Assembly: GCF_026151205.1 (NCBI RefSeq)
Contig: NC_087079.1
Coordinates: 4,669,230-4,733,229, forward strand
Reading direction: 5' to 3'
DNA from: Bolinopsis microptera
Taxonomy: Eukaryota > Ctenophora > Tentaculata > Lobata > Bolinopsidae
Length of the DNA stretch: 64,000 nt
Shown here: piece by piece, positions 11,701 to 17,700 of the stretch
How the letters are laid out: each line of letters starts with the position of its first letter
How positions within the stretch are numbered: position 1 is the first letter of the stretch
The notes under the pieces: model-generated
Seen by the model: the letters and a program-made list of their open reading frames with translations, nothing else
The model's database searches: none
What the model was told of the DNA's origin: nothing
Translations under genes and position numbers: made by a program

Positions 11701-14700
11701 ACAGACTACAGTATAACGTACCTTACAAGAATCTTATCTTAGATTAGGTATCACTTCAATGAGTAGTTAACTTTTAATAATCTAATGAAGACATGTATCG
11801 TACAATTTCATGTTATCACCGGTAGTAAAGATGAACTTTATGATGTCATAAGATATGGTAGAAAGTTGTAAATCGTATTATAATGTTTCCAGCACATTCC
11901 ACATCAAAAAACTACATGACATTCCAATAAAATTCCTTAAATTCCAGATAAAAGATCTCGAAGGAGGACCCCTGGGAACTTTATCTGATCTTATAACAGT
12001 GTTCACAGCTCCACAATACTTTATTGACAAAAGGAACAGTAAGATCCTGGATTATGACAACCTGTGTGCTGAAGGTTCACTTGTAAGTACCCGCAGATTA
12101 GGGACAAAAGGATTTCGCGATTATTTCGGCAAAAACTCGCTATACCGCGAATTTTAACATTAAACTATACATAAAATTTGTTGCAAATAATGGGAAAAAT
12201 CGCGATTCCGTACATGCCGCGATTTCCTTTTGTCCCTGCCGCAGATATTTAATTTCAGATTGATTTAAATATCAAATTTACTTTAGATTTGAATTAAGGC
12301 ATTCATGATTGTTGAGAAGTTTAGAGAATTACACTAATTACTTGCCGAGTCAGTAATCACACCGCATTTTTTTTGGACAATTATACATTGGTTCCAATGA
12401 GAATTTGAATATCTACATAATATTATATGGTCTCATTATTTAAATTGTTTATTAAATGTTCTTCATATAATATGTACCTTATAACTCTATTGTCAATTCA
12501 GGCAACTGAGAATTTTAAAATAGCTCGTGGTGAGTTTGAAGCTCTTAACAAACAACTCCTGGACGACTTACCTATTCTCATACACGAGGGTGAGTGATAG
12601 AGTTGATATTTATAGGGAATTATACATAATGTTACCTATTCTCATACACTAGGGTGAGTGATAGAGTTGATATTTATAGGGAATTATACATAATGTTACC
12701 TATTCTCATACACGAGGGTGAGTGATAGAGTTGATATTTATAGGGAATTATACATAATGTTACCTATTCTCATACACTAGGGTGAGTGATAGAGTTGATA
12801 TTTATAGGGAATTATACATAATGTCTTACCTATTCTCATACACGAGGGTGAGTGATAGAGTTGATATTTATAGGGAATTATACATTATGTTACCTATTCT
12901 CATACAAGACGATGAGTGATAGAGTTGATATTTATAGGGAATTATACATAATGTCTTACCTATTCTCATACACGAGGGTGAGTGATAGAGTTGATATTTA
13001 TAGGGAATTATACATAATGTTACCTATTCTCATACACGAGGGTGAGTGATAGAGTTGATATTTATAGGGAATTATACATAATGTTACCTATTCTCATACA
13101 CGAGGGTGAGTGATAGAGTTGATATTTATAGGGAATTATACATAATGTTACCTATTCTCATACACGAGGGTGAGTGATAGAGTTGATATTTATAGGGAAT
13201 TATACATAATGTTACCTATTCTCATACACGAGGGTGAGTGATAGAGTTGATATTTATAGGGAATTATACATAATGTTACCTATTCTCATACACGAGGGTG
13301 AGTGATAGAGTTGATATTTATAGGGAATTATACATAATGTTACCTATTCTCATACACGAGGGTGAGTGATAGAGTTGATATTTATAGGGAATTATACATA
13401 ATGTTACCTATTCTCATACACGAGGGTGAGTGATAGAGTTGATATTTATAGGGAATTATACATAATGTTACCTATTCTCATACACGAGGGGTGAGTGATA
13501 GAGTTGATATTTATAGGGAATTATACATAATGTTACCTATTCTCATACACGAGGGGTGAGTGATAGAGTTGATATTTATAGGGAATTATACATAATGTTA
13601 CCTATTCTCATACACGAGGGGTGAGTGATAGAGTTGATATTTATAGGGAATTATACATAATGTTACCTATTCTCATACACGAGGGTGAGTGATAGAGTTG
13701 ATATTTATAGGGAATTATACATTATGTTACCTATTCTCATACACGAGGGTGAGTGATAGAGTTGGTATTTATAGGGAATTATACATAATGTTACCTATTC
13801 TCATACACTAGGGTGAGTGATAGAGTTCATATTTATAGGGAATTATACATAATGTTACCTATTCTCATACACGAGGGTGAGTGATAGAGTTGATATTTAT
13901 AGGGAATTATACATAATGTTACCTATTCTCATACACGAGGGTGAGTGATAGAGTTGATATTTATAGGGAATTATACATAATGTTACCTATTCTCATACAC
14001 GAGGGTGAGTGATAGAGTTGATATTTATAGGGAATTATACATAATGTTACCTATTCTCATACACGAGGGTGAGTGATAGAGTTGATATTTATAGGGAATT
14101 ATACATAATGTTACCTATTCTCATACACTAGGGTGAGTGATAGAGTTGATATTTATAGGGAATTATACATAATGTTACCTATTCTCATACACTAGGGTGA
14201 GTGATAGAGTTGATATTTATAGGGAATTATACATAATGTTACCTATTCTCATACACTAGGGTGAGTGATAGAGTTGATATTTATAGGGAATTATACATAA
14301 TGTTACCTATTCTCATACACGAGGGTGAGTGATAGAGTTGATATTTATAGGGAATTATACATAATGTTACCTATTCTCATACACGAGGGTGAGTGATAGA
14401 GTTGATATTTATAGGGAATTATACATAATGTTACCTATTCTCATACACGAGGGTGAGTGATAGAGTTGATATTTATAGGGAATTATACATAATGTTACCT
14501 ATTCTCATACACTAGGGTGAGTGATAGAGTTGATATTTATAGGGAATTATACATAATGTTACCTATTCTCATACACTAGGGTGAGTGATAGAGTTGATAT
14601 TTATAGGGAATTATACATAATGTTACCTATTCTCATACACGAGGGTGAGTGATAGAGTTGATATTTATAGGGAATTATACATAATGTTACCTATTCTCAT

Positions 14701-17700
14701 ACACTAGGGTGAGTGATAGAGTTGTATTTATAGGGAATTATACATTATGTTACCTATTCTCATACACGAGGGTGAGTGATAGAGTTGATATTTATAGGGA
14801 ATTATACATAATGTTACCTATTCTCATACACAAGGGTGAGTGATAGAGTTGGTATTTATAGGGAATTATACATTATGTTACCTATTCTCATACACGAGGG
14901 TGAGTGATAGAGTTGATATTTATAGGGAATTAAACATAATGTTACCTATTCTCATACACTAGGGTGAGTGATAGAGTTGATATTTATAGGGAATTATACA
15001 TAATGTTACCTATTCTCATACACGAGGGTGAGTGATAGAGTTGATATTTATAGGGAATTATACATAATGTTACCTGTTCTCATACACGAGGGTGAGTGAT
15101 AGAGTTGATATTTATAGGGAATTATGCATAATAATAATAATGTCTGGGAAAAATTTGCGACATGTGGAATTTGTTGTCCATCAGGAACCACTCCAAAGAG
15201 TTTTAAATCTGGATCTGATGGGGAAAGAAATCGAGAACAAATTTTCTCCAGGCGCCTAAGGAGTTATGTCGGCACTTCAAAAACTCGTAATTACCGTAAA
15301 AAAAAGACACTCAGTTGTGTAAAATTACCGCAATAGTGATATTATGTGGGGCGAGTCAGTGTTTCAGGGTCGGCAGATCTTTATTTATTGAAATAATTTC
15401 ATTTTTATGGCTATGCTCTCGAAAATTTACTAAAATTTGAAAAATTTACTAAAATTTGGAAAACCTACTACCAAAATCTGTGAACACTATCGATTGAATA
15501 TAAATATCTGTGAATACTGCCCTGATAATCCTCCAACAGCAAGCTACACTGCTGTCTGCAGCAACTCTCTTATAGACTGGAACCTCCAGTCGGGTTGTCT
15601 ACGTGATGTACGATGGCCCTGACATTCAGGCCACACCTCATCAAATCTACTTTGCCTCCTTATACATCGTTTAAGTGAGAAACACGATGAAATTGTTATG
15701 ACGACAAGAAAGAGCTTGAACTCCATCAGTAAAACAGTGAATGCCCTGATATGTTTTAATTTCTTTATATCGTCTAGGCTCTGTTATACTGTAGAAAGTA
15801 TGGCTTTTATTTGGCAACGACGACAACGTTGATATAGTATTTGGATTCCCTAAACGATACTTTTTACCGCATCAAAAAATATCGATCACAACCAAAGTTA
15901 TGAATAGTCATAGCGTGAGCCTAAATGTAAGCTAGAGTCATGACTCGTGACGTATCATAATTAATTCAAGCTAATATTTTCTTGCTCGCGCACGTGCAAT
16001 CTCTTGATGTTGCTAAGAATGCTGTATCCTATTCCTATCCTTTTTTTACAATCCTTCTAAAAATGGCGAGGTTTAAACTCCTTTTGCGAGCTGAAATTGG
16101 CCACACCAGAGGGTTGGTTTTTGGTCGGGAGATTTCGTCAAGTTTAAAATATGATTATTATATATAGATATAATATATAAAAGATAAAATCATTAATCAC
16201 GGGATACTTTGGGAACGGTGGATTAAAGGGGTTAAATCATTTAATCGTTAAATGTAACGGGCCTAACTGGAAGAGTGTAGACCGTACGATTAAACGTTAT
16301 CTAAAATCATTTTTACATGCTAACTAAGCTAGTTACTGGAAAGATACAACGTTTGACAAACAACTTATTATTTTATAATATTGTAAAATTATAATATAAT
16401 TATTATTTATATTACCAGTTATTTGAAAAATAGAAAATTGAACATCCATTCAAGTTCATTTTCCACATTTTTACAATGTAGATTGATAGTCACGGCTAAA
16501 TGTAAATTTTGAAAAATATGAGATGCCTGGAAAACTTGTAAAATGTAAACCCACAAAACAACGACGGATCTCGAAATATGAGTTATATTGAGTCTGACCA
16601 GCCTTATATAAGTTATTTACTTCCTTTTGCTTTAGCGCGTTGTAGCAGCGTCATCAACTATCTTGGCCGCCCCTTGATCATGTGACCCTGTAGTGTTGAG
16701 ATTTATCTACTCACCAAGGAAAGTTGGGTTCCTTTTACCCAAACTTCTCTCCCTGTCCTCTCCCTCTCCCTCTCCCTCTCCCCTTACCCTAATTCCACGT
16801 TGGCGGTCAAACAGACAAACATACTATAAGTTAGACTAGAAAGCCTGTGGTCACAGGGAGAAAGCTAATAGTATTCTATGGTAGTCAATTTTCGTCGCAT
16901 CAAAAAATATCCGCCACAACCGAAGATACGGCCGATTAAAATGTAGCTCACACTGTGCACTGAACACAACGTAATTACCACAAAACCGATCAAAATGTCA
17001 CTGGCGAATCTTTGCACGTGTACGTGTGTGTAACAACCCTCGTTACCATGGTTACTATGCATCTATTTTTCGTTCAATTTGCATAGGATGCACTTCTGGC
17101 CCATTTCCATATCAATGTCACGTGATATATGATAGGAGGATGATGACCTGATTCCACGCCTGACATTCTCATCATTTTCTGCTGACATATTCACAAAATG
17201 CATCTATTTTTCGTTCAATTTGCATAGGATGCACTTCTGGCCCATTTCCATATCAATGTCACGTGATATATGATAGGAGGATGATGACCTGATTCCACGC
17301 CTGACATTCTCATCATTTTCTGCTGACATATTCACAAAATTTCTTGAAATTTTATTCAAAATCTTTACTATCTAGATTATCAAAATTTGTTACTCAAGCA
17401 CCCCCCCCCCCCTTTCTCTCTCTCTCTCTCTCTCCCTCTCTCTCTCTCTCTCTCTCTATCTCTCTTTCTCTCTCTCTCTCTCTCTCTCTCTCTCTCTCTC
17501 TCTCTCTCTCTCTCTCTCTCTCTCTCTCTCTCTCTCTCTCTCTCTCTCTCTCTCTCTCTCTCTCTCTCTCTCTCTCTCTCTCTCTCTCTCTCTCTCTCTC
17601 TCTCTCTCTCTCTCTCTCTCTCTAAGTCTCTCTCTCTCTCTAAGTATCTCTCTCTCTCTCTCTCTCTCTCTCTCTCTCTCTCTCTCTCTCTCTAAGTCTC

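What the first reader, a model, noticed from the sequence alone, without database searches (positions are those of the whole stretch)
12502..15120. A 64-bp minisatellite has amplified a 5' splice site about 40 times
Seen directly: the last ~22 bases of the BAR exon plus its GTGAGT donor form part of every repeat unit, all copies lying downstream of the real junction. At least five arrays in this window do the same, in two unrelated genes on opposite strands. This suggests a recurrent process: tandem duplication across exon-intron junctions, tolerated because only the outermost site must work. It creates dozens of potential decoy donors and could affect splicing kinetics or alternative splicing.
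Basis: partly seen in the sequence, partly recalled or inferred. Interest (0 to 1): 0.85.

Follow-up and report, generated by a model that had tools for sequence, protein, structure and literature searches.

The report
Minisatellites copying splice sites in comb jelly
In a genome that is very probably a comb jelly's, short DNA repeats often start inside the end of an exon and copy its splice signal many times into the intron; this is known from lancelets as "mirages", and it looks mostly like harmless repeat growth rather than a process aimed at splice sites.

Summary
The array at 12568-15132 has 40 copies of a 64-bp unit: 22 nt of BAR-exon end plus 42 nt of intron; 39 of 40 copies keep GTGAGTGATAG. 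The first copy is the true junction by homology. The window holds four donor-spanning arrays and one acceptor-spanning array, in a DNMBP/Tuba-like gene and an Ig-domain gene on opposite strands. In dynein and myosin exons chosen by homology, 3 of 66 donors lie inside such arrays.

The kind is known: amphioxus "mirages" and the human IFI6 minisatellite. Chromosome number and size point to the ctenophore Bolinopsis microptera.

The "recurrent process at junctions" is not supported outside the window: 13 seen against 9.3 expected, 11 without two stop-codon cases. Arrays starting 1-15 nt inside introns show a weak excess outside the window (5 against 2.2, p = 0.07, after removing a stop-codon case). 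Of three arrays translated, two would truncate the protein if an inner donor were used; the 60-bp one could add 20 residues. No RNA data were available, so donor use is inferred.

The parts
12502..12589 (+). BAR-domain exon C (..DDLPILIHE, phase 1 out); its last 22 nt are the exonic part of the 64-bp unit
   Evidence: Pfam BAR across the C/D junction
12568..15132 (+). 64-bp x 40 array, each unit 22 nt exon end + 6 nt donor + 36 nt intron; 39 of 40 donors intact
12590..12595 (+). authentic 5' splice site GTGAGT (first copy, by homology); an in-frame stop follows at once if it is not used
17953..18044 (+). exon D (AEVVKKSAYSVLALFCQYSHACHDEFRRAL)
   Evidence: phase fits the next predicted exon at 18732
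18036..18276 (+). 60-bp x 4.0 array containing the donor of exon D (GTCAGT at 18045); use of copy 2 would add 20 aa in frame, copy 3 a stop
9603..9859 (+). 34-bp array containing a 3' splice site (CCGCAG|TAAAGCGG); the last of seven CCGCAG is the predicted acceptor of exon 9850-9974
35388..35923 (-). 31-bp x 17.3 array containing the predicted donor of Ig-gene exon 36043-35918 (CACTCA|GTAAGT); 16 of 17 GT kept
54293..54400 (-). 39-bp x 2.8 array containing the donor of Ig-gene exon 54510-54384 (ACCTG|GTAAAT); the splice rebuilds TGG (W)
10641..10751 (+). array starting 7 nt into the intron after exon 10526-10633
9987..10041 (+). 8-bp array starting 12 nt into the intron after exon 9850-9974
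49010..49513 (-). 7-bp x 72 array starting 5 nt into the intron after Ig-gene exon 49688-49519
48134..48225 (-). 11-bp x 8.4 array ending 4 nt before the acceptor of Ig-gene exon 48129-47952
58773..58935 (-). 30/60-bp array ending 9 nt before the predicted acceptor of Ig-gene exon 58763-58577
5085..5126 (+). 20-bp x 2.1 array ending 8 nt before the predicted acceptor of exon 5135-5226
59941..60008 (-). 11-bp x 6 array starting 6 nt into the intron after Ig-gene exon 60152-60015 (exon below the score used for counts)

Best explanation
These are 'mirages': minisatellites born by tandem duplication with one breakpoint inside an exon end and one in the neighbouring noncoding DNA, then expanded and homogenised by slippage or unequal exchange. 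Shown: the structure, its recurrence in unrelated genes, a perfect two-copy stage (dynein locus L038), diverged and 40-copy stages, and near-complete retention of donors in the extra copies. Inferred: the spliceosome uses the exon-proximal copy (first transcribed, shortest exon), so extra copies are spliced out with the intron and are close to neutral. Minisatellites are found all over this genome; those crossing a coding end survive because the outermost copy still works, while arrays inside coding sequence are removed. No process aimed at splice sites is needed to explain how often arrays span them.
For: Array structure and 39 of 40 donors kept; 47 of 48 GT kept among the copies found in seven other arrays (copies were found with a pattern that includes the donor, so badly mutated ones would be missed). 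Arrays in 16 of 19 stretches of 10 kb. Dynein donors, chosen by Pfam hits and not by arrays: L033 65-bp x12, L038 55-bp x2.0 at 100%, L037 about five diverged 18-bp copies: 3 of 66 donors, 95% interval 0.9-12.7%. Uniform placement predicts 5.26 junction-edge arrays, 7 seen, p = 0.24. Depletion from coding sequence: 4 of 34 arrays touch coding against 15.2 expected, 1 against 6.4 for more than 60 nt, and that one is a 6-bp array in a doubtful predicted exon. Two arrays outside the window read as spanning stop codons, of an EF-hand gene and a sulfotransferase-like ORF (my reading; the EF-hand match runs to residue 102 of 108, past the predicted donor at residue 95). Amphioxus mirages are reported not to disturb splicing (PMC3087553, PMC3902484, passages).
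Against: Arrays whose edge lies 1-15 nt inside the intron exceed the uniform null: window 6 against 1.30 (0 of 500), dynein/myosin 4 against 1.18 (p = 0.03), elsewhere 2 against 0.97 (one of the two is the EF-hand stop-codon case). Pooled 12 against 3.45, Poisson p = 0.0003; without that case 11, p = 0.0009; without the window 6, p = 0.02, or 5, p = 0.07. Stronger arrays (score 100 or more) at -60..+15 lean the same way: window 9 against 4.58 (p = 0.03), outside 5 against 2.09 (p = 0.07), homology set 5 against 3.34 (p = 0.20). A looser pooled test (window included, exon overlap limited to 40 nt) gave 17 against 8.0, 0 of 500 shuffles. No transcript data, so donor choice and neutrality are unproven. 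The sample is small (130 homology-defined junctions).
Confidence: 0.72

Rival explanations
1. A mutational process favours exon-intron junctions: for example slippage or break repair promoted by the composition step at the exon edge, by co-transcriptional structures, or by repeated donor and pyrimidine-tract motifs, so that arrays start at splice sites more often than elsewhere.
For: Excess of arrays starting 1-15 nt inside introns (12 against 3.45 pooled, 11 without a stop-codon case); looser pooled excess at -40..+20 (17 against 8.0, with two more at -80..-40 that its null could not produce); stronger arrays at -60..+15: window 9 against 4.58, p = 0.03, outside 5 against 2.09, p = 0.07.
Against: No significant excess at -60..+15 in homology-defined exons (7 against 5.26) nor outside the window (6 against 4.07, two of them stop-codon ends); at -60..0 the homology set has 3 against 4.07. 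The window came to notice through its arrays. Ab initio exon edges may be drawn to array edges.
Confidence: 0.15
2. The repeated donors are functional: they tune splicing kinetics or make alternative isoforms, as in the human IFI6 transcript, where downstream repeat units are used as donors.
For: Donors almost all intact in extra copies (39 of 40; 47 of 48 found). The 60-bp array would give an in-frame 20-residue insertion by its second copy. IFI6 precedent in PMC4526556 (passage).
Against: Inner-donor use gives immediate stops for the 64-bp and 31-bp arrays. Intact donors are also expected from recent homogenisation. Donors are no special case: an acceptor and, on reading, stop codons are spanned too.
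Confidence: 0.06
3. Assembly or gene-model artefact: collapsed or expanded repeats, or exon ends placed wrongly, make arrays seem to span junctions.
For: Copy number in long arrays cannot be checked without reads. Two ab initio 'donors' read as stop-codon ends. The junctions at 18045, 35917 and 9850 rest on ab initio or by-eye models.
Against: Copies differ by shared variants; other junctions are supported by Pfam BAR, dynein profile hits on both sides and a rebuilt Ig tryptophan.
Confidence: 0.05

Closest known systems
Amphioxus 'mirages' (Adh3, globins BflGb6 and BflGb9, TnC, PGBD5)
   Same: Minisatellite-like tandem duplications spanning 5' or 3' exon-intron boundaries in several genes, units from 10 to about 160 bp, said not to disturb regular splicing (PMC3087553 and PMC3902484, passages).
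   Different: Here in a genome that looks like a ctenophore; copy numbers up to 40; stop codons apparently spanned too; splicing outcome and length instability not tested here.
Human IFI6 (6-16, G1P3) minisatellite with multiple splice donors
   Same: A minisatellite repeats the donor of one exon (title of Turri et al. 1995 in reference lists; the paper itself is not held).
   Different: A single gene as far as seen; a passage says two downstream units are used as donors giving three mRNA species (PMC4526556). Inner use is unknown here, and truncating in two of the three arrays translated.
Internal tandem repeats at exon-intron boundaries of human genes in segmental duplications
   Same: Minisatellites at exon-intron boundaries alter gene structure (PMC2812944, passages).
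   Different: Those change splicing and make new introns in recent paralogs; here the outermost junction seems kept.
Intron gain by tandem genomic duplication
   Same: Duplication carrying splice signals; the amphioxus globin paper proposes mirages as a source.
   Different: No gained intron shown here; the potato RdRp case is known to me from a search listing only (PMC4974935).

Membership tests
Mirages | Tandem repeat whose unit spans an exon-intron boundary | tested here: met
Mirages | Only one boundary copy is part of the gene; extra copies lie in the intron | tested here: met
   BAR match across C/D; dynein profile hits on both sides of the L033 and L038 arrays. By homology, not by transcripts
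Mirages | Both 5' and 3' boundaries can be duplicated | tested here: met
   donors above; acceptors at 9603-9859 and in L014 at 6433-6674, both on ab initio exons
Mirages | Regular mRNA splicing is not disturbed | not testable with these tools
   no RNA data
Mirages | Length instability between haplotypes or somatic | not testable with these tools
   one assembly; no second copy of the locus found
Mirages | Cephalochordate host (where first described; not a structural criterion) | tested here: inconclusive
   13 large contigs holding 258.07 of 264.65 Mb fit Bolinopsis microptera, not a lancelet as I recall their karyotype; a sequence-based check never ran (tool busy)
IFI6-type multiple-donor minisatellite | Inner repeat donors are used in mRNA | not testable with these tools
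   predicted outcome only: stops for two arrays, in-frame insertion for the 60-bp one
Intron gain by tandem duplication | A new intron arises within the duplicated copies | not tested
   no orthologue comparison made

The most novel reading that the evidence does not exclude
In this ctenophore, tandem arrays are seeded preferentially at splice junctions, so that about one donor in twenty carries decoy copies. Mirages would then be an animal-wide mutational hotspot, with (by extrapolation) thousands of natural multi-donor introns, some giving isoforms, as the in-frame 60-bp array could, or seeding new introns.
Probability: 0.18. Interest if true: 0.8.

Novelty: new member of a known kind. Interest (0 to 1): 0.5.

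Why it matters
If about 5% of donors (3 of 66 in a small sample) carry downstream copies of themselves, the genome is a ready natural experiment on how the spliceosome picks among like 5' splice sites at 18- to 65-bp spacing, from 2 to 40 copies. It also extends mirages, known from lancelets, to what looks like a ctenophore, suggesting that they follow from minisatellite abundance rather than from a lancelet peculiarity. They are also candidate raw material for intron gain and a trap for gene annotation.

Tried and rejected
Kinase family search: many hits were near full length in one piece, so it was not used for junctions. PF10613 (iGluR) for a sequence-based species check: not completed. PDB search with the BAR peptide: only two weak matches, both bridging integrator 2, best E 0.037.

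Rejected or corrected: (a) two ab initio 'donor' arrays (EF-hand gene; sulfotransferase-like ORF) read as CDS ends; they stay in the counts of 6 (and the first also in the count of 2 at 1-15 nt) and are taken out where said. (b) The gene finder chose the second copy's donor for exon D (18104 instead of 18044), so the 60-bp array is not in the automatic counts. (c) Nine HMM exons were set by hand, two of them with the acceptor skipped; one is the L037 exon end, moved from 5359 to 5412. (d) Row one used a wrong index (0 of 37) and is dropped; one search is used for that array. (e) For the 47-bp array at 24822 and the satellites at 32.7-33.7 kb I could place no junction.
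Full report
Setting. The window is C8:4669230-4733229 of a 264.65-Mb genome in 232 contigs. Thirteen contigs of 15-26 Mb hold 258.07 Mb. Bolinopsis microptera is given as 265 Mb, 346 scaffolds and 13 chromosomes in a table (PMC11797021, passages), with 13 scaffolds holding 97.23% of the assembly (PMC10232365, passages); 258.07/0.9723 is 265.4 Mb. I take the genome as that species or a close relative; no sequence test could be run. The plus strand carries a predicted gene with SH3 exons in the left flank, then RhoGEF and BAR exons, the DNMBP/Tuba order (that name is recalled). 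The minus strand carries a many-Ig-domain gene.

The array. Forty 64-bp copies start 22 nt inside BAR exon C. The first copy is the junction that keeps the BAR domain continuous (the Pfam score is only just over its cut-off). 39 of 40 copies keep the donor. If an inner donor were used, the frame stops two residues past the junction. All 19 genome matches of the query lie here, so the unit probably arose in place from this junction.

The others in the window. Donors: 18036-18276, 35388-35923 (-) and 54293-54400 (-); acceptor: 9603-9859. The 54293 case rests on an exon whose splice rebuilds the Ig tryptophan. The 35388 junction rests on the exon finder: the Pfam Ig match of its joined exons lies downstream of it. 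Six counted arrays abut junctions at 1-15 nt, and a seventh lies at an exon below the score cut.

Beyond the window. I wrote a small exon finder, trained on 254 kb (the window, 60 kb of flanks and 13 stretches of 10 kb; 13 of 14 asked for were returned), giving 168 high-confidence exons. I then fetched 13 loci around Pfam hits, taking multi-exon clusters without knowing their repeats: 12 dynein loci with 58 of 67 AAA_6 matches (the nine left out are long single-exon hits, lone or distant ones) and one myosin locus with 8 of 73 Myosin_head matches, 69.0 kb with 66 donors and 64 acceptors. Three dynein donors carry arrays that include the donor: L033, 65 bp x 12.1, reaching 51 nt into the exon; L038, 55 bp x 2.0, identical copies, 53 nt; L037, about five diverged 18-bp copies, 12 nt. 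None of the other 63 does by the TRF criteria used. Four acceptors have an array edge within 15 nt (L029, L038, L039, L040). Among ab initio exons outside the window, L017 shows a 48-bp donor array and the C8 flank a 59-bp acceptor array.

Is it more than chance? Arrays were placed at random in the same stretches, with up to 60 nt of exon overlap allowed. Edges at -60..+15: homology set 7 against 5.26, p = 0.24; window 10 against 5.95, p = 0.07; outside 6 against 4.07, p = 0.22. Pooled 23 against 15.3, Poisson p = 0.04; without the two stop-codon cases 21, p = 0.10; without the window 13 against 9.3, p = 0.15; without both 11, p = 0.33. Arrays of score 100 or more: homology set 5 against 3.34 (p = 0.20), window 9 against 4.58 (p = 0.03), outside 5 against 2.09 (p = 0.07). 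Edges at +1..+15 only: homology set 4 against 1.18 (p = 0.03), window 6 against 1.30 (0 of 500), outside 2 against 0.97 (p = 0.25); pooled 12 against 3.45, p = 0.0003, or 11, p = 0.0009, without the stop-codon case; without the window 6 against 2.15, p = 0.02, or 5, p = 0.07. Further settings of the pooled ab initio test, limit 40 nt, edges -40..+20: 17 against 8.0 (0 of 500); 11 against 3.4 (p = 0.002); with stricter exons 7 against 3.3 (p = 0.046). So junction-spanning arrays are about as common as free placement predicts, with a small excess of arrays that stop just short of the splice site, clear only with the window. A possible reason (inference) is that junction-spanning arrays lose their recognisable exonic part as the exon copy stays fixed while intron copies drift together. 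Coding interiors are strongly avoided: 4 of 34 arrays touch coding against 15.2 expected, reached in 0 of 1000 placements.

How it works. Inferred sequence: duplication with one breakpoint in the exon and one past the donor, as in the perfect L038 duplication; expansion; homogenisation; tolerance because exon-proximal sites are transcribed first and define the exon. The same logic covers acceptors (last copy used) and stop codons (first copy used), and such arrays are seen. Donor retention in extra copies (39 of 40; 47 of 48 of those found) shows no sign that decoys are purged, though recent homogenisation would give the same and would miss badly mutated copies.

What is known. Amphioxus mirages are the same structure, with the statement that regular splicing is not disturbed (PMC3087553, PMC3902484; passages). 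The IFI6 minisatellite is a human case with inner donors used (PMC4526556, passage; Turri et al. not held). Human segmental-duplication genes have boundary repeats that alter introns (PMC2812944, passages). I saw no report for ctenophores in the listings (8 of 8 shown; 15 of 459 shown; 8 of 122 shown; 10 of 319 shown); this covers the top of those listings in an open-licence library only.

Change on checking. One of the two arrays at 1-15 nt outside the window is the EF-hand stop-codon case. Without it that excess is weaker (p = 0.07 without the window), so I lowered the junction-bias rival from 0.17 to 0.15 and the novel case from 0.20 to 0.18.

Verdict. A true observation, a known kind, apparently a new lineage.

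Noticed in passing
L014 about 2866-3383: A 48-bp x 10.8 array at the end of an EF-hand gene: the frame reads on through the first copy to a stop codon, so the array seems to span the CDS end.
   Followed up: partly
L014 about 7751-9046: An 83-bp x 15.5 array starts about 34 nt before the end of a long ORF that looks like a carbohydrate sulfotransferase (by eye, no family search) and appears to span its stop codon.
   Followed up: partly
36510-43574 (-): A LINE-like element with endonuclease and reverse transcriptase domains (found in the ORF 37331-40087) lies between exons of the Ig gene.
   Followed up: no
26907-28175 (+): ORF of 422 aa with a C-type lectin domain between the two genes.
   Followed up: no
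L033 1941-2707 (gene-strand coordinates) and L038 4371-4480: Two different dynein genes carry junction arrays at what looks like the same intron position, with units starting at nearly the same conserved residues (LFR); coincidence or sequence-driven is open.
   Followed up: no
C3:9154012-9154485 of G000: A myosin locus matches the same profile region twice within 500 bp, a possible duplicated or alternative exon; asked for, not obtained.
   Followed up: no
32702-33718: CGGCTATAAGC-type satellite with 147- and 208-bp higher periods.
   Followed up: no
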